Positions 35,927 through 63,946 of a DNA stretch of 64,000 nt are shown here, one piece after another (position 1 is the first letter of the stretch; every line of letters starts with the position of its first letter). Position numbers and translations under genes: made by a program. Below the pieces are notes generated by a model. It was not told the origin of the DNA and did no database searches. It saw only the letters and a program-made list of their open reading frames with translations. Origin of the DNA: Ligustrum vulgare (Eukaryota; Streptophyta; Magnoliopsida; Lamiales; Oleaceae); assembly GCA_963555705.1 (NCBI GenBank), contig OY743176.1:37804497-37868496 (forward strand), written 5' to 3'.

Positions 35927-35929
35927 GCT

Positions 35930-35941
35930 TGGTATCAGAGC
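35930..35941 (+). promoter_or_regulatory. Primer binding site of element G
   Basis: TGGTATCAGAGC follows the LTR end by three bases. Confidence 0.92.
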
Positions 35942-38900
35942 CAGTCTGCGTTTCTGTAGACTGGTAAGTTTTCAAAAAGAAATTTTCAAGAAAACGTTTT
36001 TCGTTATGTAATTATTAATGAAGATTGCCACTGCCATCATTCGTTCCACCGACTCCGAGGTAAAGAAGTATAAGATGTTTAAAGTTATTTCAGTATTTCG
36101 AATACTTATTTTACTGATTTATGAGAAAGAATGAAGAGTATTTCGGATACTTATTTTAATGATTTATGAGAAAGAGAAAGAAGATTTATGATGACGTTAT
36201 GCTTGTTAAAACTTACTTGCTTAAATGCATGAGAAAGAAGTAAAGACTATGAGTACGACTCGGATAAGTCCCCAGCGAGGGAGCCGGGTCGTTACTAAAG
36301 AGAAAGAGATTTTATCCGAATAAGAAAGAAAGAAATGAGTTTTGAAGCATAACGAGAAATTTTTTCAGAAAGAAAAGAAAAGAAAGAGAACGAGTGTTGA
36401 GCATAATGGGAATAATATGACTTAAGAATGATTTTATAATAATTTTTGTCCTCGAACTTAGAAATGATGAACCCTAACTGGACTTTGCATAATTTATTTT
36501 AGACATGGCACCATTTACGAGAAGTCAAAAGAAAGGATTAGACAATATTTTCGGAATATATCAACGAGAGATAGCAAGCCAATTTTATGAAGATGTGATG
36601 AGATGTTGAGATTATGAGTAATATGATTTTATTGAGACTTGTATGAGAAGAATTATGAAATTTGAGATTTAAAGTTTTGATTCTAAATTATTGGGAATTA
36701 AGAATTGATATAGTGTTTGAGTAAGTGAATTATGTCTCTATGTTGAAGAGAAATTTATTATGAAGTTTGACCTTGTGAAGAAATTTTGGAAATATTGATT
36801 TGTGGCATATATTTTATAAGTATGATGAATGAGTGGTCATTTGAGCCAATTAATGTATTGAAGAAGTGATATTGTGATATTGGAAACTGTGATTTGAAAT
36901 TGTTATGTTGAGGAATGATGAATTGATTTTCTGGGATATTTCGGTAGTATTGAAGTCTGTTGGAATTGTTGTCAATATTTAATCGTGGTGGTCAGATGTG
37001 GGATATAACTACAGGTTGTTATTGTTGGTTATGAAGTATACCTACGGGTTGGATTAGTCCATATTACAAGGGAGACTCTGTCCGGAATTTTATCAGTTTG
37101 AGTTAAGAGCATGGTATGGTAAAGCTACCAACTAAGAGAACTGAGGTTAGAGTTGCAAGTTCATTTACACCGCAAGCAAGATTTAGTAAGTGATTTAAAG
37201 GGATAATGACTCTTGAGATATTTTTGGCTTATTCGAAGCATAATCATTTTGTATTGGAGATAGTTATATTGAAATGATCTCCTTGTTGCACAATTTCAAA
37301 ACAAAATGATGTATACAACTATTGGGATATCAAGATATACGTGAAGTGATGTGATGAATTGATGCATACATTGGGAAATGTCAAATTATATTTTGAAAGA
37401 CAGTGAAGACAAATATTATGGTGTTATTGAGAAGAATCTTGATTATTTTGAGAACGAATTGAGTACTAGTTGGAGATGATCACTTGTATTGGAGAATATT
37501 ATAAATGATGAGGATATATGATAATACTGTTGATTTGTTTTGGAAGTTGATTGGTAGATGATGCGTAAGATTTGGTTGTTTACAAGTAATAAGATTATTT
37601 GGAAAAGTCAGTTATCATGAATGAGAGATATTGGAAGTATTTTACAGTGAGATGCCCTTAAAAGTATCGAGATTTGTTATAGTGAGAAATTGGGTACATA
37701 TGATCGAATGTTTGAGATTATGTGAGACAATGATGATGGTCATAAGGTCGTTTGAATATTAAGGGTACAATAGATGATTATAAGGAGTAATGTGATGATG
37801 AGAACTGAAGGTGACGATGTATTGAGATTATGAAGCAAGTTGACTTTTCATGAATCAGTTATGCTATATTTGGTTCTAAGTAGAATTCGAAGAAAGGTGA
37901 TTATCAGCCATGGAAATGAATCAGGGTTTCCTCGTAATGTGAATGATTCACAGATGTACATTAAGTTTTCATTTATAATATTAGAAGATCATGAGAGAAA
38001 ATTGTTGGATGAAAGTGATGACGAAAATTTTATCAGGTCCTAAATTTGCTCAAATATTGCAGAAGTAATGCATTGGAATGGAGGAAAGTTTATGATAAGA
38101 TCCTACCTGGAAATTTTGGAAAGAGTTACTAATGGTATCTTGGTTCGAGAATAAGAAATGAAATTTTATGTATTTGTCCTTATGGATAGAATTTGTGGAA
38201 TGAGGATCAGACTTCACAGTAATGCCTTATTACGGAGTAGTGTGCAGAAATAGTGACATATGACAGAATCCAAGATTTATTTAGTTTAAGAGATTGATAT
38301 ATAATCTTAGTGAGCAGATTGACGTACAAGGTTCACGTGATAGATATGATGGTTATTATATTGTAATCTTAGAGAGATTGATATGATTATTTGAGGTCAT
38401 ATGATACGACGATAAGTGACATGTTACATGATTACTACAAGATATGGTGATTAGACAGTTAATAGATGTTATGGTTATCCCGTGAAGAATTGTGTGAATA
38501 TATATGGAGTCAATTGATCTCATCTTGATGGGTTATTGCATTATGGTGAAATATTACCTACGATTGAGGATCTTCATTTTGAGTCATAAGATATAGAGAT
38601 TTATTTAAGATTTTGGTTATGCAGTTTCGATTACTTGTTAGCAGTTGTACTTCTGATGTGAGTAAAATATTTTACTACAATGATGGAAAACCTGAGATGA
38701 CCAGTTGTGTGACTTTATCTATAAAGAGATTGTATCTTTGGGTTAAGTAAACTTGATGAGGATTCCTATATGATCCACAAAAGTCTTGTCCAATGGTGAT
38801 GGACTTAATCAGAGTATTGTTCAAATGGTAACATGAATTGAAGTTTTGGGAGAGCAGGGAAATTGAATCTTGAACTTCAGATTGGGAAGTTAGTGAGGTT

Positions 38901-40319
38901 TCTTAAGTTGAGAATATCAGGTTTGATTCTTATGATGATACTTTAAGTAAGTACCTTTGTCCTCAGCTAGAATGAGTATGTGATACCAGATACTTGATAC
39001 ATGATTTAAAAGTATGGACTAAAGGATTTAAGTTTGAATTCCTTCATCTTGAAAGGGAAGTTTCAGTCGAGTTTAGAAATGATTTCGTTTGTAAATCTCT
39101 TCAGAAAGATTCTGCCAAGTTTGAGTTTGTACCCAAATGTTTTGGAATTGATACCGCGTTTCTATGTTTTGGGTGATAAGGTATTATTCTTGATCAATCT
39201 TCTTGGTTTCTAGTTTAAGCATTTGAATAATTGATTGTTTACATCGTGGATTCGATATCAGTATAGATTCTGGAAAGTTTGGGGATAGAAGGTTAATGAA
39301 TGAGTTAGTAAGTTGGATAATGACGGATGATTGATTGAGTTCTACTCAATAGCTATCCAGTGTCTTTTCGACAGCTTCGTATGAGGTACAGATATATGTT
39401 AGAGAGGTTGTCCGATTTCATGTATTGTTAGTATTCGTTTTTCGGATAGAGATTCGATATTTACTTCGAGATTTGGAACAGTTTACATGTGGCAATGGGT
39501 ACTAAATTAAATTTTAGTACTGCCTACCATCTCCAGATTCAGACATTGGAAGTTATGCTTAAGGCATGTGTTCTAGACCCAAATGGTAATTGAGAGATAC
39601 ATTTTCTATCAGTAGAGATTTCCTACAACAAATAATTTTCGAGCTACCTTTGGTATGGCACCCTATGAAGCTTTGTATGGACGGCGATGTTGATCGCCAA
39701 TCGAGTGGGATGAAGTTAATGAGAAGAAATCATTGGCTTCAGAATTAATTGAGAAGAACAGTTGATACTATCGAGAAGATCAGAGTACGAAGTAGAGCTG
39801 CCCAAGACAGACAGAATAGTTATGCCGATCAAAGAAGAAAAGACTTAATGTTGGAGATTAGAGAGAAAGTGTTCTTGCAAGTAACTCCTATGAAGGGTAA
39901 TTTTCGTTTCGACAAGAACGGGAAATTTGGTATTGTTTCATCGGACCATTTGAAATACTAGAGAAGTGGATAATGTGGCTTATTGTTGGCTTTGCCACCA
40001 GAACTTGCAGTTGTTCACGATATTTTTCATGTTTCTCTGTTAAGAGGGTACGTTCGTGATCCTAGTCATGTGGTGAATTATCAGTCTATTTCAGTGAAGA
40101 AGAATTTGACTTAAGAAGAGACACTTATGTGCATAGTAGAGAGAAAAGTCCATGTCTTAAGAAACAAAGAGATTCCATTAGTTAAAGTCCAGTGAGGTAG
40201 ACATGATAGCGATAAGGCTATCTGAGATAAAGAAGAAGAAGAAGTCTGGTTAAGTATCCAGAAAGAACAGATCAAGTAAGTTTAATTTCGAGGACGAAAT
40301 TATTTTAAGGGGGTAAGGT
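35942..40319 (+). pseudogene. Element G internal region, decayed Tekay-like gag-pol
   Basis: 4.4 kb with no ORF above about 70 codons. Recognisable shreds: a gag-like start near 36505 (MAPFTRSQ), the integrase core near 39490 (MGTKLNFSTAYH), the C-terminal region at 39749-39961 (RQNSYADQRRKDLMLEIRE; FLQVTPMKGNFRF), and a chromodomain-like VHVLRNKEIPLVKVQ (about 40147-40190) with stops. It ends with TTTCGAGGACGAAA and a purine tract. The coding decay contrasts with nearly identical LTRs, so G must have been moved by proteins made elsewhere. Confidence 0.75.
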
Positions 40320-43050
40320 TGTAGCGACCAAGAATTTTTACGCAATTTAATATTTATTTTTAAAGTTTCGAAAAGCGTGTCGCTGCGATCTCATCCATTT
40401 TAAGTTAACGTCACGACGCGTTCGTCTAGCCAAATCGAGAAATATCGAGTTAATTCAATTTTAAATAAATTCCCGAATTTCTAAAATTATATCATTTATT
40501 TATTTATTTCTTTCAAAACCGTTTTAAAATCCAAATCGTGTTAAGCTTATTTTATCAGATCCATTTTTCCCAACTCAGTTGAATTCACGCGTATTAATTT
40601 CTCGATTTCCGTTCCTTGTGTTTCAAACCCCATAAAATACCCAAAATATTCTACTTCAACCCATACTTCCACCAACACTCCCCAACACCCAACCCATACC
40701 TTATTGCCCCCCTCCCTATTTTCTTCAGACTTCTTCCCCCTATGCACAACCAGAATTCTCCAACCGACGCCACTACCACCTCCTTCCTCACCTTCATCAT
40801 CATCACATAAACCTGCAGACTCTTAATCCTAAACATCCAACTCCACTGCCTCAACCATTTTCGACCAAGCAACCACCCTCATTGCCAAGACTTGAGCACC
40901 ACAGCCACCATCACTACCAATCACCTTCACCTCCATTCCCATCAACCATCCACAACCAAGAACCCCACCCAATCACCATGAACCACCCTGAACTCCTCTG
41001 CAAGAACCACCATCAACCAATTTGCAATCAACCACAGTAGTAATCATCACCATCACGCCCACAAACCAGTCATCACCACCGTACAACACCACCGTCACCT
41101 CCGACTCACCTCCATTGCATACCACCAATCAAACTCCAAACCCACCCATTTCCACCTCAACCACCGCAGCTGCCCAACACCACTACCCCCTTCACCCAAC
41201 CAACCCGACCAAGAACCGCCTGCAGCTCCACCCACAACCCAGCCAATTGAACTCATCACCACCCAGAACCACAGACAACCTGTACACCAATCATCATCAT
41301 CATCATCATCATCACCAAGCACCACAGTCACCACCACCTCCACAAAACGCTCCACCACCATCACAAGCCCGCCGCGACCCCAACACACACACACCCAAAA
41401 ACCCAAAAAAAATCGAAACCAAGAAAGAGAACAAGCCCGGAACCTTACCTGAACTTGACCCATTTCCGCCGGCAGAACTCCAATCGTGACCACCCAAGAC
41501 CGCGACGTCACAGCCAAATCAGCCCCCAATCCACCACCTTTTCTCCCTCCTTGCGACGGCGGTGATACCCCCCGTGGATCGCCGGCGGTTGGCGCCGGCA
41601 ATGGCCTCCGCCGCTCCTCCCCCTCCCCGTCTCTCGCTCCCTGCCTCCGCTCGCTCTCTCTCTACCTTGTGAGAGAGGGAGATATTATGTATGTATATAT
41701 ATATATATACACATATATATTTTAATTTTAAAGTTTTCTTAAATTGCAGTTTAGTCCCTAAGTTCTTAAATGTTTTAAATTCAGTCCCTATAGTTTTAAA
41801 ATCTGTTATTTCAGCCCCTTAAGTTCCAAATGATTTTAAACAGCCTTTCATTTTTAAAATCTGATTATTTCAGTTTGAATATTTTAATTATAATATAAAG
41901 TGGATCCTTAAAGTTTCAAAAATTTACATTTTAGTCCCTCAACTTTCGAATTGTTCATTTTAGTCCCTCAACTTTCGAATTGTTCAATTTAGTCCTCCAA
42001 CTTTCAAAATCATCGATTTCAGTCCCCAAATTGTAAATTATCATTTTTAAACTATAAATTTCAAAAGACTAATTCGACTTAATCTTCTAATTGGCTATAC
42101 GAAGCGTACGGAGAATTAAAGAATGGAAGTCGTTTCCCGCTCAATCACACTCGTCCAGTTTAAGGTAGACTCGCCCCTATTAATTGATTTAAATTATGAT
42201 TGCATGTGAATGTGTATGTTATGTGACTTATGTGAAAGTCATTTTTATGAAAGAAAAGAGAATGTATTTCTTCGGAAATAACGATATTGTTATGCTAGTC
42301 ATAACTTATATGTTTTTATGCATGAGAAAGAAAGAAGAGAATGTCTTGCAAGATAAATGATGATGTTATGCATAACATGTGCCTTATGTGCACAAGAAGA
42401 AAGAGCCTCGTGCTATAATGCACAAAGAAGAGCAACCCACACCCTATGATTTTTAAAGAGCCTATTATTTTTAAAAGAAGCCAAGTGCTTAAATGCACAA
42501 GAAGAGCAACCCACACCCTATGATTTCTAAAGAGCCTATGATTTTTCAGAAAGAAGCCAAGTGCTTAAATGCACAAGAAGAGCAACCCACACCCTATGTT
42601 TTCTAAAGAGCCTGCATTTATGTGTTCAATTATATTGTAGATTAATTAATTGGCGATGAGTCTACTGAGTATTTCATTCGAAATGCTCAACATGTTATTT
42701 TAACAGTTTTGCAGATCTCGGAGATAGTGGCAAGTGATGGATGATGGTGGCAATAACCGTTAAATGGTTGAAATGTCTTACTTTAATGATTTCAGTAATT
42801 TCCAACATTAGATAATTTTGAGAATCTCAGTTATTGAGAAATTATGACATTGTCAACTGCTTTACAAAATTAATGGTTCGATTTGCTATTTCAGATTGTT
42901 TCATAAATGTTTTCAATCTTATCGACCATTACAGTTTATTTAATGTTGTCAAAAATGAATTTCAATTATTTATTTCGCAAAAATATATTCTGAAAAATTA
43001 GATCAGACGATGACGTGGTGAACCGGGTATTCAGAACTCGGGGCGCTACA
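40320..43050 (+). mobile_element. 3' LTR of element G
   Basis: A 2,731-bp copy of 33196-35926. The right flank (CCTTCC) has no matching duplication on the left because the left flank is duplicated internal DNA. Confidence 0.92.
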
Positions 43051-43260: not shown

Positions 43261-43274
43261 CCCTAGTCGCTAAC
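43261..43274 (-). mobile_element. A5 LTR stub left of element F
   Basis: CCCTAGTCGCTAAC is the A-family LTR sequence that continues at 53011 (CTAACTGACTCTG). The last five bases are the target duplication of F. Confidence 0.85.
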
Positions 43275-46200
43275 TATAGCGACCCAGAATTTTTATGCAA
43301 TAAATAATTATTTTAATATTTAGAAAATTGTGTCGCTACTATTTCACTCATTGTTTTAAAGTTAACGCCGCGACGGATTCGTTTAGCCAAGTCAAGAAAT
43401 ATCGAATTTGTTCGATTTTAAATTAAAATCCGAATTTCTAAAATTATGTTATTTTAATTATTTATTCTCAAATGTATTTTCAGTCCAAAAACATATCTGT
43501 TTCAAATACGCTTCTTGATCAAAGTTAGTCCAATATTCATAATCAAAATTTATATTACATAAATTTCCCCACATGTTTTCTTCTTTATCATCAAAGCATC
43601 CCCATCATATCTTTACACCAATTTTATCAAAGAATTCCCACCACCACCCGTATGCATCACATTTTACACCAAATCAACCATCATTATGTTTCAAGAATAT
43701 AATGATGATGTATCCATGTTCTATTTTTTTTATCACACCAAATTCTCCACTACAAATCATTCCTATGCCTAATGCCAATTATAAATTTCCACCTCAGTCA
43801 GAAAACCATCACCACCAGCAGCTCCATTACCAGACTCCAATATCAATTCACACAATAGGTACCATCGCAGTTCACTACCCTCAATCATCATCCTTAATAA
43901 ATCAACCCACCTACAGCTTAAATCATTCATCTATAACACCATCTATATTATCATCATCATAAATCTTCATCACCACCACTGGATTTCCACCACTGCCCAA
44001 ATCACCCTTTTGACACCATCAGTCCACTGCAGCACTTCAGTCATAACCATAACACCAACATCTAAGCACAATCAGTACGCCACCAAGAAATCATCACTGT
44101 CCAATTCAAGAAAAATCACTCAACCTATACAAATCCCAAGCTGGCAACCATCGCTCCATCACTGCCAAACCAGTTCACTGCCATGGCTCGCAGCCACCTC
44201 TATTGCCGATCGAACCTCAGTCACTGCCCCAGAATCACCACCAATCTGTATCACCTCTTCCACCAACACCACTGCACGATCAAATCCCTCAATCTGCCAT
44301 AATCGATACACCAAAACACCCACTGCCTACTGCTCAACATCAAACCCAACTCCAATCGCAATCCAAAATCAAAACCCAAAACCCAGATTAAGCCAAGCCC
44401 AAATACTTACTTCAATCGCCGCTCCCTTCGCCGGAATTTCAGACCCAAATCGCGAACTAAGATTTGATTTCTTTTCGGTTTCGCCCTTGTTTCTCGTACC
44501 CAAGCCCTCAAACCAGAAACCTTACCTTGGCCGCCTCTTGCCGCTACCCTGCGACGGCTATCCGCCGGCCAATCGTCGGTTGTAGCACCGGCAGTGGATG
44601 GAAGGAGGAGACGTCGCCCTTATTCGTTTCACTCTCTCCGATCCCTCTCTCTCTCTCTCTCTCTTCGATCTGAATGAGAAAAGGATATTTTAAATATTAT
44701 AAACTTTCGGAAATTTGCAACTTTAGTCCTGAAGTTTTAATTTGTTTCAATTCAGTCCTTTCAGCTTTAAATCTTTTTAATTTCAGCCCTTAAGTTTTAA
44801 ATGAGTCTTAATCAGCCCTTCATTTTTAAAATCTATTATTTCAGTCCCTGCTGATTTACTTTTAAGCCCAAGTTTTAAAAAGATTTACATTTTAGTCCCT
44901 CAACTTTCAAAGTATCTATTTTAGTCCCTGAACTTTCAAAAGTATTCATTTTAGTCCCTCAACTTTCAAAACATCAATTTTAGTCCTCAAATTATAATTT
45001 ATCATTTTGAACTATATATTCGATATACTAAAGTGACTTATTGGCTAAGACGAAGCGTACGGAGAATTTAAAGAAGTCATTCCCGCTCAACTTTGCACTC
45101 GTCGGATTTGAGGTAGACTCGCACTTATTAATTGATTTAAATTATGATTTCATATGAATGTCATGTGACTTGTGAAAGTCAATTTTTAAGAAAAGCAAGT
45201 ATGTTGTTATGAAAGGTAAATATACCTTATGTTGTTATGAAAAGTAAGTATGTTTTTATGAAAAGAAAATATACTTTATGTTTTTACGAAAAGTAAGTAT
45301 ACCCTATGCTTCACGAAAATGTTTTTTTGGATCATTGCTATGAAATCAATCTACCAAGATTGTTTTGGGTCCCATATGATAAGTTATGATATGTTAAGGG
45401 GACCGGAGTTTTAGTAGCGCTACACATAAGAATTCTTGCCACGAAGTTCGGTAACATTCTTGTGTCTCCTATGTTTATGAGGATTTGCCACGAAGTTCGG
45501 TAAAATTCCTGTGTTTCCATATGTTTATGAGGATTTACCACCTAAGTTCGGTAAAATTCCTGTCGCATATGTTTATGAGGATTTCGATCCTATCTTATGT
45601 TATGATGCAATTGATCCCTATGAATTTCAAAAATTATGCTTGGTATACTTACTACATAAGAATTCTTGCCACCTAAGTTCGGTAAAATTCTAGGATTTCG
45701 ATCTTATCCTATGTTATGATGAAAACTTACTGTTATTATGATTTTACTGCATAAAGAATTCTTGCCACCTAAGTTCGGTAAAGTTCTTGTATGTTTATGA
45801 GGATTTCAATCCTATCTTATGTTATGCTTTCAAAAGAAATTATGCTTGGCATAATTAAAATGTTTTTATAAGTATATGGTTTTCAAAGAGCTGTTTTCAA
45901 AGAGCTATTTTCAAAGAGCCTATGATTTGCAAAATATGTCCCGTGCTGTAATGCACAATATGAGATTTATCAAGAGCCGTTTTATAAAGAAGCTCTATCA
46001 ATGCCCGTTTTATAAAGAGCCGGGATTTATGTGTTTAATCATCTTATAAATTAAATTAATTTGTGATGAGTCTACTGAGTATTTCCCCCATGAAATACTC
46101 ACCCTACTTTTTAACAGTTTTGCAGATTTCGGAGACGGTGGCGAGCGATGAATGATGGTGGCAATAATCGTTAAACGGTTGAAAGTTTGACGTTAATGAT

Positions 46201-46463
46201 TTCCGTATTTTTCCAAACAATCGAATAATTTAGAGAAGTTCATTTATTTGAGAAATTATGACATTGTCAATTTCTTTACAAAATTAATGGTTCGATTTAT
46301 TATTTCAAATGGTTTCATAAATGTTTCAATTTTATCGGCCATTACAGTATATTTAATGTTGCCAAAAATGAATTTCAATTATTTCTTCCGCAAAAATATT
46401 ATTCGAAAAATTTAGACAGAAAATGACGTAGTGAATCGGGTATACGGAACTCGGGGCGCTACA
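43275..46463 (+). mobile_element. 5' LTR of element F
   Basis: A 3,189-bp LTR beginning TATAGCGACC (not TG) in both copies and ending GGGGCGCTACA. It has a CA-rich block (43560-44390), a CT repeat (44647-44664), TTTTAGTCCCTCAACTTTCAAA repeats (44892-44985), a minisatellite with AAGTTCGGTAAAATTC (45430-45800), GAGCTNTTTTCAAA units (45885-45925) and a perfect 10-bp hairpin TGAGTATTTC/GAAATACTCA (46075-46100). Confidence 0.92.
45430..45800 (+). repeat. Minisatellite in F LTR
   Basis: About five degenerate copies of GCCACSWAAGTTCGGTAAAA followed by TATGTTTATGAGGATTT, unit roughly 45-110 bp. The same array is in the 3' LTR (51975-52350) and reversed at 61480-61860. Confidence 0.85.
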
Positions 46464-46466
46464 AGT

Positions 46467-46478
46467 TGGTATCAGAGC
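46467..46478 (+). promoter_or_regulatory. Primer binding site of element F
   Basis: TGGTATCAGAGC lies just after the LTR end at 46463. Confidence 0.92.
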
Positions 46479-47209
46479 TAGTCTGCGTTTCTGTAGACTG
46501 GAAAAAATTTTCAAAAAGAATTTTCAAGAAATATTTTCCATTATAAAATATTATTGATGAAGATTGTCACTGCCATCATTTCGTTCCACCAACTCCGAGG
46601 TAAAGAAGTTTATGATGTTTAAAGTTATTTCAGTATTTCGAATACTCATTTTATTGATTTATGAGAAAGAATGAAGAGTATTTCGGATACTTATGATTTA
46701 TGAGAAATAAGAATGTATCTTTCGAAAATAATGATGTTGTTATGCTTTGTCATAACTTATATGCTTTAATGTATGATTATGAGAAAAAATTTTTAAGAAA
46801 GAAAACGAGTGTTGAGCATAAGGGAATATGATTTATGGTATATATTTATAATTATGAGTAGTCTTTTGAGCCAATTAAGGTATGGAAGGAAGTGATATTG
46901 TGATATTGAAAAATATGATTTGAAATTGTTATGTTGAGGAATTATGAATTGAATTATGAGATATTTTGATGATATTGAAGTGTTGGAATCGTTTTCAATA
47001 TTTTTTTATCGTTGTGATTAAATGTGGAGTTATTTATTATTGTGAGTTATGAAGTATGCTTATGGTTTGGATAAGTCCAAATTACAAGGGAAACTCTGCC
47101 TAGAATTTTTTTATCGTTTGGAATTAAGAGCATGATATGATAAGCATCTACTAAAGGAATTAAGGTTAGATATGCAAGTTCATTTACATCACAAACGAGA
47201 TTTAGTAGA
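46479..47209 (+). other. F internal DNA left of the cargo
   Basis: AT-rich non-coding DNA that follows element G in pieces (for example GCAAGTTCATTTACATCACA near 47172 corresponds to G near 37157). Similarity to G stops at GATTTAGTAGA (about 47209), the likely left edge of the cargo. Confidence 0.6.
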
Positions 47210-47222
47210 TGATAGCAGAGAT

Positions 47223-47228
47223 TTTATT
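47223..47228 (-). terminator. Poly(A) signal candidate for the LOG-like unit
   Basis: The minus strand reads AATAAA within GAGAAAATAATAAAATCTC, about 380 bases after the LOG stop codon and near the cargo edge. Confidence 0.45.
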
Positions 47229-47329
47229 ATTTTCTCATAAGGAGAACACACAAGAGTCACACTGGAAAGGAAATACATGAAACACACAAAAGCAAACGAG
47301 AGAAGCATGGGATAATCCTCAAAATGAGA

Positions 47330-47545
47330 GATGTGTTTCCGGAGTAGCCGTATCCTACCACCTCTGATCTTTTGAGGAAATAAAGAAACCTTCAAAGAGG
47401 TGTGTTTCGAGAGTAAGAATACTCCGTAATCTACCACCTGGAACCTTTGAGGTACACACAAGATTTAAACATTAAGGAAATCCTAGTAAATGGAGGGGTG
47501 TCTCGAGAGTGAGAATACTCCGTACTCTACCCCCACCTATTCTAA
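47330..47545 (-). repeat. Three degenerate repeats in the LOG 3' region
   Basis: Plus-strand starts near 47333, 47400 and 47499. The unit has GTGTYTCGAGAGTRAGAATA, then CTCCGTAATCTACC and a following TTTGAGG (two best copies; the third is diverged). Spacing is about 67 and 100 bp. No match to the surrounding retroelement DNA was seen. Confidence 0.65.
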
Positions 47546-47605
47546 GATTCACAGAGTTAAATTTACATTAACCGGACTCCATTTTCGCTTGATTCCCCTT
47601 CCTTG

Positions 47606-48202
47606 CTACCAATCTATCTTAACTCCTGCTGGATCTTGTATTGAGATATATGACTGCAGCTTATCCAGTAGTTCATCAATAGTAGGAGCGGAAATAAGAA
47701 GCCTTCTGGAAAATGGAGAGATGAATCCCTGTTCCACAGCATAATCAAGAAAGGTTAACAAACCATCAAAGAAATTGTTAACATTCAGAAGCCCAATAGG
47801 CTTAGTATGGAGATCTAGTTGAGCCCACGAGGTAATGTTAAAGATTTCTTCTAAGGTACCAAAACCTCCGGGCAGGGCTATAAAGGCATCAGAACCATAT
47901 AGCATACAAGTTATGCGTTCATGGATGGATAATGTTTGAACTTCATGCCCTCGTGTTTTGCCCGCAACATCTACCAAAGGGACAGGTATGACACCGATTA
48001 CTTTTGATTTCTCTGCAAGAGCAGATTGGGAAACACAACCCATTAGACCACTGCTACCACCCCCATATACAAGAGTGATACCTTTTTCCCCCAGTTTTTT
48101 TCCAAGATCTACAGCCGCTTCTAGATAACCGAAGCCTTTCCCCACTTTTGATCCACAAAATACACAAATAGTTTTGATTTGTCGAAGTTTTGGTGCTTCC
48201 AT
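47606..48202 (-). CDS. LOG-like: LOG-type cytokinin riboside 5'-monophosphate phosphoribohydrolase, intronless
   Basis: A 198-codon intact frame from ATG 48202 to TAG. LOG enzymes release active cytokinin bases from their riboside 5'-monophosphates, in cytosol and nucleus. Seen here: ICVFCGS (12-18), the nucleotide-binding loop VYGGGSSGLMG (45-55), Arg96 in IHERI, the signature PGGFGTLEE (111-119, PGGxGTxxE), WAQL (126-129), GLLNV (137-141) and GFISP (159-163). Length is near plant LOG size (about 200-220). The usual Lys after the Arg (RK) is Ile97. The C-terminus ends in a short IDW tail, as I recall for a divergent plant LOG-like clade. Plant LOG genes normally have several introns; this has none and lies antisense inside element F, so it is a captured cDNA-like or foreign copy. 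Expression is unknown. Confidence 0.88.
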   Translation of the reverse strand: MEAPKLRQIKTICVFCGSKVGKGFGYLEAAVDLGKKLGEKGITLVYGGGSSGLMGCVSQSALAEKSKVIGVIPVPLVDVAGKTRGHEVQTLSIHERITCMLYGSDAFIALPGGFGTLEEIFNITSWAQLDLHTKPIGLLNVNNFFDGLLTFLDYAVEQGFISPFSRRLLISAPTIDELLDKLQSYISIQDPAGVKIDW

Positions 48203-48502
48203 CTTTGATAGTATAGAAGAGAAAACTTACGAAGAAGATGTGATTTTGGGATGCCTGAACTATGAAATATGTTTGGCTATTTAAAGCCGGAAAAATTTAC
48301 TGTTTTTGATTGATTCTGAAAAAGTAAAGATTTACTTTTGACAAAATCAGCCCACTTTTGAATATTTTTATCGTATCGAGGCTGTCACCTTTCGGCGATT
48401 AAATATTTTATTTCCAGCTTTATCAAACCTCGAGAAAGGAAAATATATTTTATTTTCAAAACGCGTGAAAGAAAGCAGCAAAATATTTTAAAAAGATTTA
48501 CC
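48203..48502 (-). other. Intergenic region between the two cargo ORFs
   Basis: Three hundred bases, AT-rich, no ORF. On the minus strand it has two AATAAA signals (48449-48454 and about 48407-48412) shortly after the Cys-rich stop, then the TATA-like box of the LOG unit. This arrangement fits two separate transcription units rather than one spliced host gene. Confidence 0.55.
48277..48285 (-). promoter_or_regulatory. TATA-like box of the LOG-like unit
   Basis: The minus strand reads GGCTTTAAATAGCC, about 75 bases before the LOG ATG. The core TTTAAATAG is the same as upstream of the Cys-rich ORF (49087-49095). Confidence 0.5.
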
Positions 48503-49054
48503 TTATATAATTGCTGAACTGCCAGAAGCCTCATTTTGTAAAACAGACTGGCAAACAGGATCTTTCGATACTATATTTTGGAGACTATAACGATTTTTGT
48601 CCTCGTTAAACTGAGCGTATAAGGAGAGAAGTTCACGTTGTACATAACCACTTGGGTGCGTCTCAAGAGTCAGTCGAATATCATCCAAAGACTCCTTACT
48701 CAGTCCACCCTTTATGAATTCGATTTTATCATCCCGATTAGTAGAAGAATATCCTACTGATTTGCAACGAGTATCACAGTTCCAACGAGCACATTTGTAG
48801 CAACCACCCAGTCTTTTTGCTCTTCGTTTCTTTGCAAACGTGCTTTTGCCTAAACCAGGCATGTGCTTTGGAAATGTTGATGGTAATTCACCAGATAGTC
48901 GAACCTTTGCTTCTATCAACCAGCGAACATCTTCTGGAATATCATGAGCCATTAGCAACCTCAATCTTTCGAGCCTTATTCTATAGATCTTTCTCAGATC
49001 ATTCATAGGAAGACTGGAATAATACTTGCGAATGTTAGAAAGAATGATATCCAT
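48503..49054 (-). CDS. Basic four-cysteine protein, resembles virus nucleic-acid-binding CRP
   Basis: A 183-codon intact frame from ATG 49054; the context AACAATGG favours this start over an in-frame TTG five codons upstream. N-terminal helix rich in Leu/Arg (about 5-40); WLIEAKV near 45-51; a basic stretch AKKRRAKR (74-81) that could be a nuclear signal; then Cys85, Cys88, Cys93 and Cys97 (Cys-X2-Cys-X4-Cys-X3-Cys), a likely zinc site; then IEFIKGGL. A basic KRRA run directly before a Cys-X2-Cys, a later Cys pair and an FI-x-GG block is the layout of cysteine-rich proteins of carlavirus-like RNA viruses, which bind nucleic acid and modulate host transcription or silencing. The C-terminal about 65 residues are not recognised. 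This is a pattern match by eye; a host zinc protein is possible. Confidence 0.6.
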   Translation of the reverse strand: MDIILSNIRKYYSSLPMNDLRKIYRIRLERLRLLMAHDIPEDVRWLIEAKVRLSGELPSTFPKHMPGLGKSTFAKKRRAKRLGGCYKCARWNCDTRCKSVGYSSTNRDDKIEFIKGGLSKESLDDIRLTLETHPSGYVQRELLSLYAQFNEDKNRYSLQNIVSKDPVCQSVLQNEASGSSAII

Positions 49055-49086
49055 TGTTTGATGATTCAACCTCTTCTCAGCATGAA

Positions 49087-49095
49087 CTATTTAAA
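49087..49095 (-). promoter_or_regulatory. TATA-like box of the Cys-rich unit
   Basis: The minus strand reads GCTTTTAAATAG, about 33 bases before the Cys-rich ATG. A 5-codon upstream ORF (ATG at 49083) ends just before the main start. Confidence 0.45.
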
Positions 49096-49791
49096 AGCGC
49101 AAAGGATCTGAGTGAATCCGCGTGATGTTGTGACCAGCAAGAAAGCGCAGGATTATTTTAATGAAAAGAGGAGACAAGAAGTAATGCGCTGTTAAATTTT
49201 ATCGATAAAGGAGATTTGATTGGAGATTTGGAATATTTTCTTGGATTATGGGTACTGATATTTTGTTTTAATAATGATAATCTTGGTATAATGTGATGAT
49301 ACGTGGAAAGTAAAATGAGTACCGTATTGAATCAGAATTCATACGTATATACAAGTGAAAGAAATACTTTGCAGGAAATGTGGTAACATTTAAGTATAGA
49401 ATCTTAGTTTTGGGAGATATTTGTTTACTGAATTTTGGGTTACAAATATTGGAAAGATAAGTTGATGATATTATGTTGATATGTTTGGGTATATTACGTA
49501 GAGAAAATATTCAGGTAATTCTTTGATTATTTTGGGAATTTTCGATGATAAGAAAGGAAAAATTATTATGATACGATATGTCAGTAAAGATTTGTTGAAA
49601 TTTTAGAGATATATACGAATATTTGAGGTCACATGATACGATGATAAGTGACAAGTTACATGAATACTACAAGATATGATGAAATTTTTACATACGATTG
49701 GGAATTGTTTTGATTATTTTGAGAATATTCGATGATAAGAAGAAGAGATTCTGATTAAGTATTCAGAAATTATAAGATTAAGTAAGTTTAA
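49096..49791 (+). other. Right edge of cargo and F 3' internal DNA
   Basis: The cargo edge lies somewhere in 49130-49300. From about 49600 the sequence follows element G (TGATACGATGATAAGTGACA matches G near 38400). No supported ORF. Confidence 0.5.
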
Positions 49792-49825
49792 TTTCGAGGA
49801 CGAAATTATTTTAAGGAGGTAAGAT
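49792..49825 (+). promoter_or_regulatory. Polypurine tract of F with upstream palindrome
   Basis: TTTCGAGGACGAAA (49792-49805) is followed by TTTTAAGGAGGTAAGAT, directly before the 3' LTR at 49826. The purine tract primes plus-strand synthesis. The palindrome recurs upstream of the tracts in G and, as variants, in B and A. Confidence 0.8.
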
Positions 49826-52800
49826 TATAGCGACCCAGAATTTTTATGCAATAAATAATTATTTTAATATTTAGAAAATTGTGTCGCTACTATTTCACTC
49901 ATTGTTTTGAAGTTAACGCCGCGACGGATTCGTTTAGCCAAGTCAAGAAATATCGAATTTGTTCGATTTTAAATTAAAATCCGAATTTCTAAAATTATGT
50001 TATTTTAATTATTTATTCTCAAATGTATTTTCAGTCCAAAAACATATCTGTTTCAAATACGCTTCTTGATCAAAGTTAGTCCAATATTCATAATCAAAAT
50101 TTATATTACATAAATTTCCCCACATGTTTTCTTCTTTATCATCAAAGCATCCCCATCATATCTTTACACCAATTTTATCAAAGAATTCCCACCACCACCC
50201 GTATGCATCACATTTTACACCAAATCAACCATCATTATGTTTCAAGAATATAATGATGATGTATCCATGTTCTATTTTTTTTATCACACCAAATTCTCCA
50301 CTACAAATCATTCCTATGCCTAATGCCAATTATAAATTTCCACCTCAGTCAGAAAACCATCACCACCAGCAGCTCCATTACCAGACTCCAATATCAATTC
50401 ACACAATAGCTACCATCGCAGTTCACTACCCTCAATCATCATCCTTAATAAATCAACCCACCTACAGCTTAAATCATTCATCTATAACACCATCTATATT
50501 ATCATCATCATAAATCTTCATCACCACCACTGGATTTCCACCACTGCCCAAATCACCCTTTTGACACCATCAGTCCACTGCAGCACTTCAGTCATAACCA
50601 TAACACCAACATCTAAGCACAATCAGTACGCCACCAAGAAATCATCACTGTCCAATTCAAGAAAAATCACTCAACCTATACAAATCCCAAGCTGGCAACC
50701 ATCGCTCCATCACTGCCAAACCAGTTCACTGCCATGGCTCGCAGCCACCTCTATTGCCGATCGAACCTCAGTCACTGCCCCAGAATCACCACCAATCTGT
50801 ATCACCTCTTCCACCAACACCACTACACGATCAAATCCCTCAATCTGCCATAATCGATACACCAAAACACCCACTGTCTACTGCTCAACATCAAACCCAA
50901 CTCCAATCGCAATCCAAAATCAAAACCCAAAACCCAGATTAAGCCAAGCCCAAATACTTACTTCAATCGCCGCTCCCTTCGCCGGAATTTCAGACCCAAA
51001 TCGCGAACTAAGATTTGATTTCTTTTCGGTTTCGCCCTTGTTTCTCGTACCCAAGCCCTCAAACCAGAAACCTTACCTTGGCCACCTCTTGCCGCTACCC
51101 TGCGACGGCAATCCGCCGGCCAATCGCCGGTTGTAGCACCGGCAGTGGATGGAAGGAGGAGACGTCGCCCTTATTCGTTTCACTCTCTCCGATCCCTCTC
51201 TCTCTCTCTCTTCGATCTGAATGAGAAAAGGATATTTTAAATATTATAAACTTTCGGAAATTTGCAACTTTAGTCCTGAAGTTTTAATTTGGTTCAATTC
51301 AGTCCTTTCAGCTTTAAATCTTTTTAATTTCAGCCCTTAAGTTTTAAATGAGTCTTAATCAGCCCTTCATTTTTAAAATCTATTATTTCAGTCCCTGCTG
51401 ATTTACTTTTAAGCCCAAGTTTTAAAAAGATTTACATTTTAGTCCCTCAACTTTCAAAGTATCTATTTTAGTCCCTGAACTTTCAAAAGTATTCATTTTA
51501 GTCCCTCAACTTTCAAAACATCAATTTTAGTCCTCAAATTATAATTTATCATTTTGAACTATATATTCGATATACTAAAGTGACTTATTAGCTAAGACGA
51601 AGCGTACGGAGAATTTAAAGAAGTCATTCCCGCTCAACTTTGCACTCGTCGGATTTGAGGTAGACTCGCACTTATTAATTGATTTAAATTATGATTTCAT
51701 ATGAATGTCATGTGACTTGTGAAAGTCAATTTTTAAGAAAAGCAAGTATGTTGTTATGAAAGGTAAATATATCTTATGTTGTTATGAAAAGTAAGTATGT
51801 TTTTATGAAAAGAAAATATACTTTATGTTTTTACGAAAAGTAAGTATACCCTATGCTTCACGAAAATGTTTTTTTGGATCATTGCTATGAAATCAATTTA
51901 CCAAGATTGTTTTGGGTCCCATATGATAAGTTATGATATGTTAAGGGGACCGGAGTTTTAGTAGCGCTACACATAAGAATTCTTGCCACGAAGTTCGGTA
52001 ACATTCTTGTGTCTCCTATGTTTATGAGGATTTGCCACGAAGTTCGGTAAAATTCCTGTGTTTCCATATGTTTATGAGGATTTACCACCTAAGTTCGGTA
52101 AAATTCCTGTCGCATATGTTTATGAGGATTTCGATCCTATCTTATGTTATGATGCAATTGATCCCTATGAATTTCAAAAATTATGCTTGGTATACTTACT
52201 ACATAAGAATTCTTGCCACCTAAGTTCGGTAAAATTCTAGGATTTCGATCTTATCCTATGTTATGATGAAAACTTACTGTTATTATGATTTTACTGCATA
52301 AAGAATTCTTGCCACCTAAGTTCGGTAAAGTTCTTGTATGTTTATGAGGATTTCAATCCTATCTTATGTTATGCTTTCAAAAGAAATTATGCTTGGCATA
52401 ATTAAAATGTTTTTATAAGTATATGGTTTTCAAAGAGCTGTTTTCAAAGAGCTATTTTCAAAGAGCCTATGATTTGCAAAATATGTCCCGTGCTGTAATG
52501 CACAATATGAGATTTATCAAGAGCCGTTTTATAAAGAAGCTCTATCAATGCCCGTTTTATAAAGAGCCGGGATTTATGTGTTTAATCATCTTATAAATTA
52601 AATTAATTTGCGATGAGTCTACTGAGTATTTCCCCCATGAAATACTCACCCTACTTTTTAACAGTTTTGCAGATTTCGGAGACGGTGGCGAGCGATGAAT
52701 GATGGTGGCAATAATCGTTAAACGGTTGAAAGTTTGACGTTAATGATTTCCGTATTTTTCCAAACAATCGAATAATTTAGAGAAGTTCATTTATTTGAGA

Positions 52801-53010
52801 AATTATGACATTGTCAATTTCTTTACAAAATTAATGGTTCGATTTATTATTTCAAATGGTTTCATAAATGTTTCAATTTTATCGGCCATTACAGTATATT
52901 TAATGTTGCCAAAAATGAATTTCAATTATTTCTTCCGCAAAAATATTATTCGAAAAATTTAGACAGAAAATGACGTAGTGAATCGGGTATACGGAACTCG
53001 GGGCGCTACA
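49826..53010 (+). mobile_element. 3' LTR of element F
   Basis: A 3,185-bp LTR nearly identical to 43275-46463, also starting TATAGCGACC and ending GGGGCGCTACA, followed by the duplication CTAAC. Confidence 0.92.
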
Positions 53011-53629
53011 CTAACTGACTCTGAATAGAATTGTAATTAAGCTAAAATAACTAAAATAAACTAGAACTAAATAAAACCCTAACCGCCTAATTGATTCAAA
53101 ACTAAGACGCCTAAGTTACGGCCGTGACTTATGAGTTTACGGCCGTAAGTAAGCTACGGATTAAAAATTAAAAACATATGTTACGGCCGTGACAATTTTA
53201 TTTACGGCCGTAAGTGACATTCTGAACAAAATAATAAAAGTTACAAAACTCTGTTTACGGCCGTGAGTATTTGGATTACGGCCGTGAATACTTCCACTTC
53301 ATTTACGGTCGTGAGATCATGCGTTACGGCCGTAATTGCCTTTCTGCCCAATTTCGTGATGTTGATGTTACGGCCGTAAAAATGGGTGTTACGGCCGTAA
53401 GTCAACTTCTGCCCAATTTTCTGATCCTTTGACATTAATTGATCTGATTTGAATCTCGACTCGAGCCCAACATGAAACTTGTTCATTTTCCTATGTAGAA
53501 TATTGTTGAATTGCTCGTATCTTGATTTCTCATTTTTGACGCCTTTTCCGGATCACATCATCCCCTCTTCCTTTAAGATGATTCGTCCCGAATCATAACA
53601 TTTTTAGCTTCTTTTCCGGATCACATCAT
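53011..53629 (-). mobile_element. A5 3' LTR remainder and doubled polypurine module
   Basis: A-family LTR to GGATCACATCA at 53560, then the polypurine tract (TCCCCTCTTCCTTT), palindrome and second LTR-start module, broken at about 53629 and joined to a plus-strand A LTR. The internal ORF of this copy is gone. Confidence 0.85.
53118..53398. repeat. ACGGCCGT array in A5 LTR
   Basis: Ten sites with the same phasing as 14308-14589 (first pair 53118/53139, last pair 53370/53391, each 21 bp apart). Confidence 0.92.
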
Positions 53630-60646: not shown

Positions 60647-60793
60647 TACCCCGGTCAAGCAACTCGAATATTCGAAGTAAGCTAAAATAACCAAAATGCC
60701 ATTTCTCTGAATATTTATAAATTTTCAACTCTGATGTTCTATCTGACAGTTCGATGTGATCAGATCACATGATATCATAGAATTCAACAGTCA
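60647..60793. other. Non-LTR spacer with a 17-bp palindrome
   Basis: A short stretch not matched to any element here. It contains ATGTGATC-A-GATCACAT at 60754-60770 (8-bp arms). No gene seen. Confidence 0.5.
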
Positions 60794-60798
60794 CTTTG

Positions 60799-63700
60799 TG
60801 TAGCGCCCCGAGTTCCGTATACCCGATTCACTACGTCATTTTCTGTCTAAATTTTTCTTTTTTCGAATAATATTTTTGCGGAAGAAATAATTGAAATTCA
60901 TTTTTTTGCAACATTAAATAACTGTAATGGCCGATAAAATTGAAACATTTATGAAACCATTTGAAATAGTAAATCGAACCATTAATTTTGTAAAGAAATT
61001 GACAATGTCATAATTTCTCAAATAAATGAACTTCTCTAAATTATTCGATTGTTTGGAAAAATACGGAAATCATTAACGTCAAACTTTCAACCGTTCAACG
61101 ATTATTGCCACCATCATTCATCGCTCGCCACCGTCTCCGAAATCTGCAAAACTGTTAAAAAGTAGGGTGAGTATTTCATGGGGGAAATACTCAGTAGACT
61201 CATCGCAGATTAATTTAATTTATAAGATGATTAAACACATAAATCTCGGCTCTTTATAAAACGGGCATTGATAGAGCTTCTTTATAAAACGGCTCTTGAT
61301 AAAACTCATATTGTGCATTACAGCACGGGACATATTTTTCAAATCATAGGCTCTTTGAAAATAGCTCTTTGAAAACAGCTCTTTGAAAATCATATACTTA
61401 TAAAAACATTTTAATTATACCAAGCATAATTTCTTTTGAAAGCATAACATAAGATAGGATTGAAATCCTCATAAACATAAGGAGACACAAGAACTTTACC
61501 GAACTTAGGTGGCAAGAATTCTTATGCAGTAAAATCATAATAACAGTAAGTTTTCATCATAACATAGGATAGGATTGAAATCCTCATAAACCTAAGAATT
61601 TTACCGAACTTCGGTGGCAAGAATTCTTATGTAGTAAGTATACCAAGCATAATTTTCTGATATTCATAGGGATCAATTGCATCATAACATAAGATAGGAT
61701 CGAAATCCTCATAAACATATGCGACAGGAATTTTACCGAACTTAGGTGGCAAATCCTCATAAACATATGGAAACATAGGAATTTTACCGAACTTCGTGGC
61801 AAATCCTCATAAACATAGGAGACACAAGAATGTTACCGAACTTCGTGGCAAGAATTCTTATGTGTAGCGCTACTAAAACTCCGGTCCCCTTAACATATCA
61901 TAACTTATCATATGGGACCCATAACAATCTTGGTAGATTGATTTCATAGCAATGATCCAAAAAAACATTTTCGTGAAGCATAGGGTATACTTACTTTTCG
62001 TAAAAACATAAAGAATATTTTCTTTTCATAAAAACATACTTACTTTTCATAAAAACATAAGGTATATTTACCTTTCATAAAAACATACTTGCTTTTCTTA
62101 AAAATTGACTTTCACAAGTCACATGACATTCATATGAAATCATAATTTAAATCAATTAATAAGTGCGAGTCTACCTCAAATCCGACGAGTGCAAAGTTGA
62201 GCGGGAATGACTTCAATTTCTTTAAATTCTCCGTACGCTTCGTCTTAGCCAATAAGTCACTTTAGTCTATCGAATATATAGTTCAAAATGATAAATTATA
62301 ATTTGAGGACTAAAATTGATGTTTTGAAAGTTGATGGACTAAAATGAATACTTTTGAAAGTTCAGGGACTAATATAGATATTTTGAAAGTTGAGGGATTA
62401 AAATGAATACTTTCAAAAGTTGGGATTTAAAATCAAATAAAGTAAATCAGCAGGGACTGAATAATAGATTTTGATACTTGAGGGTTTAAAATAAATACTT
62501 TTGAAACTTAGGGCTGAAATGATCATTTTAAAACTTGGAGACTGATTTGAAAGACTTTAAAACTATAGGGACCAAAGTTGAAATTTCAAATAATATAAAA
62601 TCAACATTTTCTCTCTCCTTCAAATGAATTCAGAGACGCGAGAGAGAGAGAGAGAGGGACGAACGGCGATTGAAATCCTGAGCTGAGGGATTTACTGGTG
62701 GAGGTGCTTCTGCCAACGATTCGCCGGTACCACGCCGGCGCAGGGTGCAGAAAAAGGTGGTCAAGGTGAGGTTTCAAATCTAGGGAGTTTAGTGCGAAGT
62801 TAGGTGCGAAATCGAAATGTAACCTAGGTTTTGAATTCACGACTTTCCGGCGAAAAACCGATCAATCAGTCGGCGTAGAGGTATTGTTCTGGGTTCTTGG
62901 GTTGATTTTGGGTTTTTTCTGATTTGCGATTGAAAATGAAAGTGGGCAGTTGTATGGGACTAGGTTTGGCCGCGATTGTGATGATTCTGACTGTAGGCGA
63001 TTGATGCAAATTGATTTCCAGATTGATGTAGATGATTGGCGTTGAATTGGGAAAACGGATTGAAGGTGGGTAGTTATGGTGACTACTTGAGCCGTGGTTT
63101 CTTGGTTGATTGCAGTGATGAAACAGTGGTTGCTTGGTTCGATTTAGGCAGTCTGCTGATTAGGAATTTGGGTTGTGATCCTGTGGTGGTTTATTGATTG
63201 ATCTTGGTTGAAATATGAAACGAGGCAGTGATAGTGTAGTGACTTTCTTGTGATGTTGAAAATGGTGGACTGGTTTCAAATCTTGGAGGTGATGACTGAT
63301 TCAGTTGTTGGTAAATTTTGGTGATGAATTGAGGGCTTGGTTTTTGGCAGCAAATTGGTGATGATTGCTGATTCTGAAATGGTTCTATGGTGATGTTTGT
63401 ATAAATTTGGTGATGCTCGGTGGTGATTGTGATGAGTGCTAAATTGATAGCTGTATATGGAGGTGAATATATTGTGTTTGTGATCATGTGTTGTGATGAT
63501 AATGGAGAATATAATCATTATGTTCTTGCAAGATAATGAATGCATACGGGTGGTGGAGTTAGTGGGGAATAAAATCATTGAATGGAATAATTATAATTTA
63601 GTTTAATATGATATGGATTTGGTGTAAAGAGAAAAGAAAGGAGGAGAAAACGTGGGGGATGAAATCAACTAAAAATTTAACTATCTTTGATCAAGAAACG

Positions 63701-63946
63701 TTTTTAAAACAGATATATTTTTGACTGAAAAATACATTTTGAAAATAATACTTTGAATAAATAATTAAAATAATATAATTTTAGAAATTCGGATTTTAAT
63801 TTAAAATCGAACAAATTCGATATTTCTTGACTTGGCTAGACGAACACGTCGCGGCGTTAACTTCAAAATAATGGGTGAAATAGTAGCGATACAATTTTCT
63901 AAATATTAAAATAATTATTTATTTCATAAAAATCTTGGTCGCTACA
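60799..63946 (-). mobile_element. Solo LTR, F subfamily, reversed
   Basis: A 3,148-bp LTR from TGTAGCGCCCC to GGTCGCTACA (plus strand), with duplications CTTTG at 60794-60798 and 63947-63951. It is the reverse complement of the F LTR type, with the same minisatellite, hairpin (about 61166-61194) and AGTCCCTCAAC-type repeats. Its ORFs are low-complexity and not genes. Confidence 0.95.

What the first reader, a model, noticed from the sequence alone, without database searches (positions are those of the whole stretch)
47210..49150. Young LTR retrotransposon carrying an intact cytokinin-activating LOG-type gene and a Cys-rich gene
Seen: inside element F (TSD CTAAC, LTRs with only about a dozen differences) are two intact, intronless, same-strand ORFs antisense to the element. 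One keeps the PGGxGTxxE signature and nucleotide loop of LOG enzymes. Known: plant LOG genes have several introns, and LOG activity makes active cytokinin. Inference: F captured and spread a module able to raise cytokinin, next to a putative nucleic-acid-binding regulator. A mobile element that distributes a hormone-activating gene would be new to me.
Basis: partly seen in the sequence, partly recalled or inferred. Interest (0 to 1): 0.88.

Follow-up and report, generated by a model that had tools for sequence, protein, structure and literature searches.

The report
Retrotransposon cassette: virus-like suppressor plus LOG
A young, gutted retrotransposon in a plant genome carries two backward-facing genes, one resembling a plant-virus nucleic-acid-binding protein and one a cytokinin-activating enzyme; both proteins are preserved across the copies examined and in a second, unrelated retrotransposon family, so the pair likely helps these elements spread, probably by dampening RNA silencing and promoting cell division.

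Summary
Element F (43275-53010; TSD CTAAC; LTRs 12 substitutions in 3185 sites) carries two intact antisense ORFs. The 198-aa ORF is LOG-type (PF03641 1e-33). The Cys-rich ORF (183 aa) matches flexivirus nucleic-acid-binding proteins (PF05515 1.5e-7), known silencing suppressors. It is no one-off retrocopy: 150 of 150 scored genome places encode the identical LOG; in 20 copies chosen by a non-coding probe the pair is present in 20, NABP uninterrupted in 20, LOG open in 18. A second LTR family with unrelated LTRs shares only this ~2-kb cassette, again antisense; between families LOG omega is ~0.05 (dS ~0.6), NABP ~0.14. TATA-like boxes precede both genes. Three Orobanche gene models run from NABP into LOG in the same order. 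So: an old, selected, portable two-gene cassette of non-autonomous LTR elements. Against: a derivative with most of the cassette deleted also multiplied, LOG lost a conserved Lys and misses a curated cut-off, no expression data. LOG domains in Gypsy elements were already reported (Citrus, Populus); my searches found no report of the NABP partner or of sharing between families. Function is inferred.

The parts
43270..43274 (.). target-site duplication CTAAC, left copy
   Evidence: sequence
43275..46463 (+). 5' LTR of element F (3189 bp)
   Evidence: 99.5% to the 3' LTR; 12 substitutions in 3185 sites
46467..46478 (+). primer-binding-site-like TGGTATCAGAGC (tRNA-Met type, label recalled)
   Evidence: the 12-mer occurs in 19 of 20 fetched long F copies
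47312..49360 (-). cassette shared with the unrelated family B: promoter(s), NABP, spacer, LOG and ~300 bp downstream
   Evidence: main F/B alignment: 49098-47312 with L050, 49360-47312 with L052
47606..48202 (-). LOG-type gene, 198 aa
   Evidence: PF03641 1e-33; TIGR00730 3.8e-48; PDB 2a33 (At2g37210) 9e-57; 150 of 150 scored places identical
48277..48285 (-). TATA-like TTTAAATAG upstream of LOG
   Evidence: present in 21 of 21 (window + L029-L048) and in 3 of 4 family-B copies
48503..49054 (-). NABP-like gene, 183 aa (virus-type nucleic-acid-binding / cysteine-rich protein)
   Evidence: PF05515 1.5e-7, PF01623 6.4e-6, both above Pfam cut-offs; 342 homologues at E <= 0.01
49087..49096 (-). TATA-like TTTTAAATAG upstream of NABP
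   Evidence: present in 21 of 21; TTTAAATAG in 4 of 4 family-B copies
49810..49825 (+). polypurine-tract-like stretch before the 3' LTR (label recalled)
   Evidence: sequence
49826..53010 (+). 3' LTR of element F (3185 bp)
53011..53015 (.). target-site duplication CTAAC, right copy

Best explanation
The stretch is a two-gene cassette (a virus-type NABP-like gene and a LOG-type gene, each behind a TATA-like box) carried antisense inside two unrelated LTR element families of this genome and kept by purifying selection, and it likely serves the elements by predicted suppression of RNA silencing together with predicted local cytokinin activation. Shown: the anatomy, the copies, the conserved proteins, the two carriers, the selection. 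Inferred: the NABP-like protein would bind nucleic acid as its flexivirus relatives do, weakening silencing of element transcripts and/or switching on host growth genes; the LOG-type protein would release active cytokinin from its nucleotide and keep carrier cells dividing or meristematic, the cells from which new insertions are inherited; transcription would come from the cassette's own antisense promoters; and because the products would act in trans, carriers without gag-pol, and even deletion derivatives, could profit while autonomous elements supply reverse transcriptase and integrase.
For: LOG and NABP identity. Viral type of the NABP: 60 of 62 aligned family members match Viral_NABP; the four best of 7 BFVD matches of its model are flexivirus NABPs / RNA silencing suppressors, but weak, E 0.19-3.6, on a model of pLDDT 64.5. 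Copies: 150 of 150 scored places (9312 first-look candidates) identical over 198 aa without stops. Copies picked by a non-coding probe (20 fetched of 40 scored): pair in 20/20, NABP uninterrupted in 20/20, LOG open in 18/20, of which one has a two-codon gap. Variants in that sample: LOG 20 synonymous to 12 non-synonymous (expected 27% synonymous, P 2.7e-5), 7 to 0 among shared variants; NABP 24 to 24 (P 2e-4). Indels against the window: spacer 18 of 20, NABP 0. In 20 whole internal regions all 20 LOGs are 597 nt and all 20 NABPs 552 nt; diversity NABP 0.016 against 0.047-0.074 in the three fastest non-coding stretches. Second family: L049-L052 share only the cassette, have own short LTRs and, in 2 of 4, exact 5-bp duplications; LOG omega 0.045-0.057, NABP 0.137-0.140 in the 3 undamaged copies. 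Order NABP then LOG in three Orobanche gene models. Functions of viral relatives: passages.
Against: A derivative lacks most of the cassette: 102 of 150 places show a 128-aa frame, and the one fetched (L053) joins NABP codon 36 to LOG codon 104 out of frame at 96.6% identity to F, so the cassette is not needed in cis. The LOG misses the curated cut-off of the cytokinin-phosphoribohydrolase equivalog (109.4 of 300 bits) and has Ile where At2g37210 and At5g11950 have the Lys of HxRK; Orobanche P0018 and P0019 also lost the Arg and a Gly of PGGxGT. NABP zinc-finger spacing differs from a carlavirus (CX2CX4CX3C against CX2CX12CX4C). Two of 20 probe-chosen LOGs are frameshifted. Some non-coding stretches (leader, LOG downstream, promoter-proximal) are also slow, 0.015-0.029. 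No transcripts, activity or phenotype were testable; no autonomous partner was found.
Confidence: 0.6

Rival explanations
1. The pair is a captured endogenous viral segment: a lost or unsampled plant virus carried NABP and LOG together, and LTR elements picked up its DNA copy and kept it.
For: Pfam knows the NABP-like domain from flexiviruses, and the best structure matches are flexiviral; both genes are intronless.
Against: Two scans of viral contigs found no locus encoding a relative; each gene has its own TATA-like box, unlike an RNA-virus genome; the closest solved relatives of the LOG are plant LOGs; L050 shows no further ORF beside the pair except one antisense to LOG. It explains origin, not the purifying selection.
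Confidence: 0.2
2. Selection acts for the host: the cassette is a host gene pair (cytokinin tuning, defence) that LTR elements merely duplicate.
For: NABP relatives are annotated as genes in Orobanche, Populus, Acer and Xanthoceras.
Against: 300 listed LOG places in two searches; 18 of 20 long F copies and 4 of 4 B copies lie between recovered LTR pairs; tandem arrays (21 adjacent pairs 6.2-7.2 kb apart among 150); young insertions. Host selection would be expected to hold one or a few copies.
Confidence: 0.12
3. The LOG-type protein is no longer a cytokinin enzyme but a nucleotide-binding scaffold or decoy working with the NABP.
For: Lys of HxRK replaced by Ile; Arg and Gly of the active-site motifs lost in P0018 and P0019 while other family residues persist; equivalog cut-off missed.
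Against: PGGxGTxxE is kept in 37 of 38 and HER in 38 of 38 copies (21 of the 38 were chosen or defined as identical), with cross-family omega ~0.05.
Confidence: 0.25
4. Passenger only: a recent burst from one master with no function of the two ORFs.
For: LTR pairs are young; a cassette-deleted derivative also multiplied.
Against: Cross-family dS ~0.6 with LOG omega ~0.05 and NABP ~0.14; no indel in NABP in 20 copies against spacer indels in 18 of 20.
Confidence: 0.05

Closest known systems
LOG (YgdH) domain in Gypsy-type LTR elements of Citrus and Populus trichocarpa (PMC9289625, section 12; first report credited there to Steinbauerova et al. 2011, not held here)
   Same: LOG-family domain as an extra domain of LTR elements
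   Different: the section read names no NABP partner, antisense pairing, copy-wide selection or second element type; the 2011 abstract, recalled only, places LOGL4-like ORFs in Athila-like elements
Antisense additional ORFs of plant LTR elements (Grande gene23, RIRE2, Retand, PvRetro13; PMC7264820, passages)
   Same: conserved antisense ORF inside an LTR element; own promoter reported for Grande
   Different: no clear similarity to known proteins according to the review, apart from an SMC domain in PvRetro13; here two recognisable genes in an element without gag-pol
NABP / cysteine-rich proteins of flexiviruses (PF05515, PF01623)
   Same: Pfam match, basic stretch followed by CX2C
   Different: zinc-finger spacing, location in a plant genome, partner gene
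Plant LOG cytokinin riboside 5'-monophosphate phosphoribohydrolases
   Same: full-length match, PGGxGTxxE, the Arg of HxRK
   Different: intronless, distinct marks (IFNITSWA, NNFF), Lys to Ile, C-terminus 19 aa shorter than in family B
Gypsy AlkB/2-ODD elements of Phalaenopsis (PMC9289625, passages)
   Same: LTR element with an extra enzyme gene of a kind also found in flexiviruses (AlkB)
   Different: large element with gag-pol; different enzyme

Membership tests
LTR retrotransposon (element F) | two LTRs, target-site duplication, PBS and PPT | tested here: met
   (PBS/PPT labels recalled)
LTR retrotransposon (element F) | gag-pol (autonomy) | tested here: not met
   no match to the window's own gag-pol ORFs within 43275-53010; so taken as non-autonomous
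Ty3/gypsy or Ty1/copia assignment of F and B | RT/INT phylogeny | not testable with these tools
   no pol found in either; labels rest on recalled PBS/PPT types
LOG phosphoribohydrolase | LOG/Lysine_decarbox domain over full length | tested here: met
   (TIGR00730 163.6 bits, cut-off 96.35)
LOG phosphoribohydrolase | PGGxGTxxE and the Arg of HxRK | tested here: met
   window; 37 of 38 and 38 of 38 copies, 21 of them identical by choice
LOG phosphoribohydrolase | Lys of HxRK; NCBIfam equivalog cut-off | tested here: not met
   Ile in its place; 109.4 bits against 300. Hence 'LOG-type', not 'a LOG enzyme'
LOG phosphoribohydrolase | activity on cytokinin nucleotides | not testable with these tools
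   needs an assay
Flexivirus NABP / CRP | Pfam PF05515 / PF01623 above gathering score | tested here: met
   32.0/23 and 26.5/20.9 bits
Flexivirus NABP / CRP | C4 zinc finger CX2CX12CX4C behind a basic stretch | tested here: not met
   basic stretch and CX2C kept, but CX2CX4CX3C in 57 of 62 family rows; carlavirus spacing from PMC8839810
Flexivirus NABP / CRP | encoded at the 3' end of a flexivirus genome | tested here: not met
   inside LTR elements. Hence 'NABP-like'
Flexivirus NABP / CRP | RNA silencing suppression | not testable with these tools
   needs a patch assay
Conserved antisense aORF | antisense ORF kept in most copies | tested here: inconclusive
   20 of 20 probe-chosen copies keep the pair, but the deletion derivative is common too

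The most novel reading that the evidence does not exclude
A portable 'virulence cassette' of retrotransposons: a virus-type silencing suppressor and a cytokinin-activating enzyme, with their own antisense promoters, passed between unrelated LTR element families and kept through long divergence (dS ~0.6) because together they make dividing, germline-bound plant cells permissive for element spread, in trans, even for carriers without gag-pol.
Probability: 0.35. Interest if true: 0.94.

Novelty: new variant of a known kind. Interest (0 to 1): 0.85.

Why it matters
Extra ORFs of plant LTR elements have mostly had no recognisable function (review). Here two recognisable genes, one of a class that RNA viruses use against silencing and one that makes a hormone, are under clear selection in large numbers of copies and in two carriers. 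If the inferred roles hold, retrotransposons use virus-like counter-defence and host-growth manipulation, and the question of what antisense ORFs do becomes directly testable with two small proteins.

Tried and rejected
Recent retrocopy of a host LOG: rejected (cross-family omega, own marks). Host LOG genes of this genome: not found; two protein searches with At2g37210 letters (95 and 50 aa) listed 150 places each, 56-60% identical and of the element type, so the intron structure of host genes is untested. Element E (33-43 kb) as autonomous partner: the four frames tried gave no Pfam match. Viral contigs: no relative. Phage LOGs: 22 records, 20 listed, 32-44% identical; set aside as bacterial-type. 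Plasmids: no NABP. PDB for NABP: one match at E 0.8 by sequence, none by fold. A single-sequence model of LOG was unusable (pLDDT 36.5). Homologue some searches failed; one search answered and reported 3 of 3 used, so LOG homologues were never searched. The comparison mixed strands and was replaced: there the exact start of NABP was found in 6 of 8 loci L001-L008; L004 and L008 were not looked at further. Papers: ten searches; (Pfam names of the NABP) gave two glyoxalase papers only.
Full report
Observation. The window is C9:37804497-37868496 of an unnamed 1.385-Gb genome in 51 contigs; the best-scoring named NABP relatives are from Orobanche, so the plant may belong to the Lamiales (inference). 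Element F is a textbook insertion: LTRs 43275-46463 and 49826-53010, 12 substitutions in 3185 sites, CTAAC duplication, TGGTATCAGAGC behind the 5' LTR. No match to the window's own gag-pol ORFs lies between the LTRs, but two uninterrupted ORFs lie on the minus strand.

Identity. The downstream ORF is LOG-type over its full length (PF03641 1e-33; TIGR00730 3.8e-48; PDB 2a33, 9e-57). Its AlphaFold model is mediocre (pLDDT 64.5); of 7 BFVD matches the four best are flexivirus NABPs or silencing suppressors (Fig latent virus 1, Cherry mottle leaf virus, Grapevine Kizil Sapak virus, Sweet potato chlorotic fleck virus), but none is significant (E 0.19 to 3.6). According to passages of PMC8839810 and PMC12172455, such viral proteins bind nucleic acid, suppress silencing (weakly in one carlavirus) and in that carlavirus act as a transcription factor causing hyperplasia.

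A widespread family. 342 proteins match the NABP at E <= 0.01, 120 listed; named ones come from Orobanche, Striga, Populus, Acer and Xanthoceras. Three of the 120 (P0012, P0018 from O. gracilis; P0019 from O. minor) are gene models that run from NABP into LOG, with Pfam domains of both and marks shared with the window LOG (EIFNITSWA, GLLN[VI]NNFF) against two Arabidopsis LOGs. So the order NABP then LOG is not peculiar to this genome. In P0018 and P0019 the LOG part lacks the Arg and one Gly of the active-site motifs; P0012 lacks that stretch altogether.

Copies. The LOG protein query met 9312 first-look candidates; 150 were scored and all 150 are identical over 198 aa. 146 of these ties lie on C1-C3; if the list is complete there, about 790 such copies would exist genome-wide (extrapolation). 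21 neighbouring pairs lie 6.2-7.2 kb apart, as expected of head-to-tail arrays sharing LTRs. Of these 150 I fetched 20 as long stretches: NABP is without stops in 20 of 20 (L027 matched over 176 of 183 residues); LTR pairs of the 18 that could be compared are 99.46-100% identical, while aligned LTR pieces are 76-97% identical to the window's LTR with unalignable middles: several young subfamilies.

Selection. Because picks identical LOGs, I chose copies by a non-coding probe (49200-49820): 2785 candidates, 40 scored, 20 fetched, my choice. All 20 hold both genes; NABP is uninterrupted in 20; LOG is frameshifted in 2 (L029, also 2 stops; L040) and open in 18, one of these (L047) with a two-codon gap; these three were left out of codon counts. 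Pairwise pN/pS is 0.106 for LOG and 0.287 for NABP. By variants, LOG has 20 synonymous to 12 non-synonymous, all 12 being singletons, and 7 to 0 among shared ones; NABP 24 to 24, shared 10 to 7 (copies are related, so P values are guides). Indels against the window: spacer 18 of 20, LOG 3, NABP 0. In 20 whole internal regions (window plus 19 of 20; L027 dropped) diversity is 0.0094 in LOG (chosen as protein-identical, so biased), 0.0163 in NABP, 0.047-0.074 in the spacer rest, second leader part and far upstream part, and 0.015-0.029 in the PBS leader, the stretch downstream of LOG and the two promoter-proximal stretches. The TATA-like boxes are present in 21 of 21 probe-chosen copies and window.

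A second carrier. A search with Arabidopsis LOG letters listed another 150 places with no overlap with the first list; 146 have no stop. Four fetched ones (L049-L052) share with F only the cassette (window 47312 to 49098-49360, about 80-87% DNA). They are 6.1-6.4-kb elements with own short LTRs (174-234 bp), TGTTATAA/TTATAACA-type ends and exact 5-bp duplications in 2 of 4 (L051 4 of 5 letters, L052 none); the tract AAGGGGGAG and the site CGTTATCAGCACGAG make them copia-like by recall. The cassette is antisense again (inferred from those sites), and besides one 125-aa ORF antisense to LOG and one of 107 aa outside the element L050 shows no other ORF of 90 aa or more. Between F and three B copies (L051 has stops and was left out) LOG dS is 0.56-0.66, dN 0.03, omega 0.045-0.057; NABP (176 codons) dS 0.68-0.71, omega 0.137-0.140. 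This is the strongest result: both proteins were kept for a long time in two carriers.

Against. In a third search 102 of 150 places have a 128-aa frame. The only one fetched, L053, joins NABP codon 36 to LOG codon 104 out of frame, 96.6% identical to F around LOG; that the other 101 are alike is inferred from the equal frame length. So the cassette is not needed in cis; this fits products acting in trans, but weakens any claim that each copy profits. Of 45 copies fetched as L009-L053 the pair is present in 44, damaged in L029, L040 (LOG) and L051 (both). F's LOG ends 19 residues before family B's; the missing tail is still readable downstream of the stop.

Mechanism. Most likely (inferred): antisense promoters make the NABP-like and LOG-type proteins; the first dampens silencing and/or activates host growth genes, the second releases cytokinin, and both favour dividing, inheritable cells in which autonomous partners mobilise the carriers.

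Prior art. Section 12 of PMC9289625 (read) reports LOG (YgdH) domains in Gypsy consensus sequences of two Citrus species and P. trichocarpa, in line with Steinbauerova et al. 2011, which is not held; I recall its abstract as naming LOGL4-like ORFs in two Athila-like elements. Section 12 names no NABP domain; its supplements were not seen. Passages of PMC7264820 review antisense ORFs mostly without known relatives; passages of PMC11728184 propose silencing modulation for extra ORFs of Tekay elements. Ten searches of the library (listed in Tried and rejected) showed no paper with the NABP partner; most subscription papers are not covered.

Noticed in passing
L053; places with 128-aa frame: Common cassette-deletion derivative of F (NABP codon 36 joined to LOG codon 104, out of frame), a parasite-of-a-parasite candidate; only one of 102 examined.
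   Followed up: partly
window 47549-47605 (-): Directly behind the F LOG stop (TAG, then CAA) the frame stays open for the C-terminal tail that family-B LOGs carry; whether the stop is leaky is unknown.
   Followed up: partly
window 33198-43050: Related element E with roughly 77-87% similar LTR and leader pieces, but no cassette match and only short frames; a frame at 39749-39961 resembles the integrase end of chromoviruses (recalled; no Pfam match).
   Followed up: partly
window 60782-63944 (-) and 32135-32712 (-): Further F-type LTR pieces (about 88-93% and 98% identical to F's LTR), perhaps a solo LTR and a fragment.
   Followed up: no
G000:C22:15291560-15318065: Five probe matches at 6.45-6.53 kb spacing: apparently a long head-to-tail array of F elements.
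   Followed up: no
window 53011-53100: The right flank of F matches other places of the window (8629, 14192, 19982, 56170): F sits in another repeat.
   Followed up: no
window 53100-53420: Run of many short TTACGGCCGT(A/G)A-like motifs right of F.
   Followed up: no
L050:6318-6559: About six copies of a 40-bp tandem repeat inside a family-B element.
   Followed up: no
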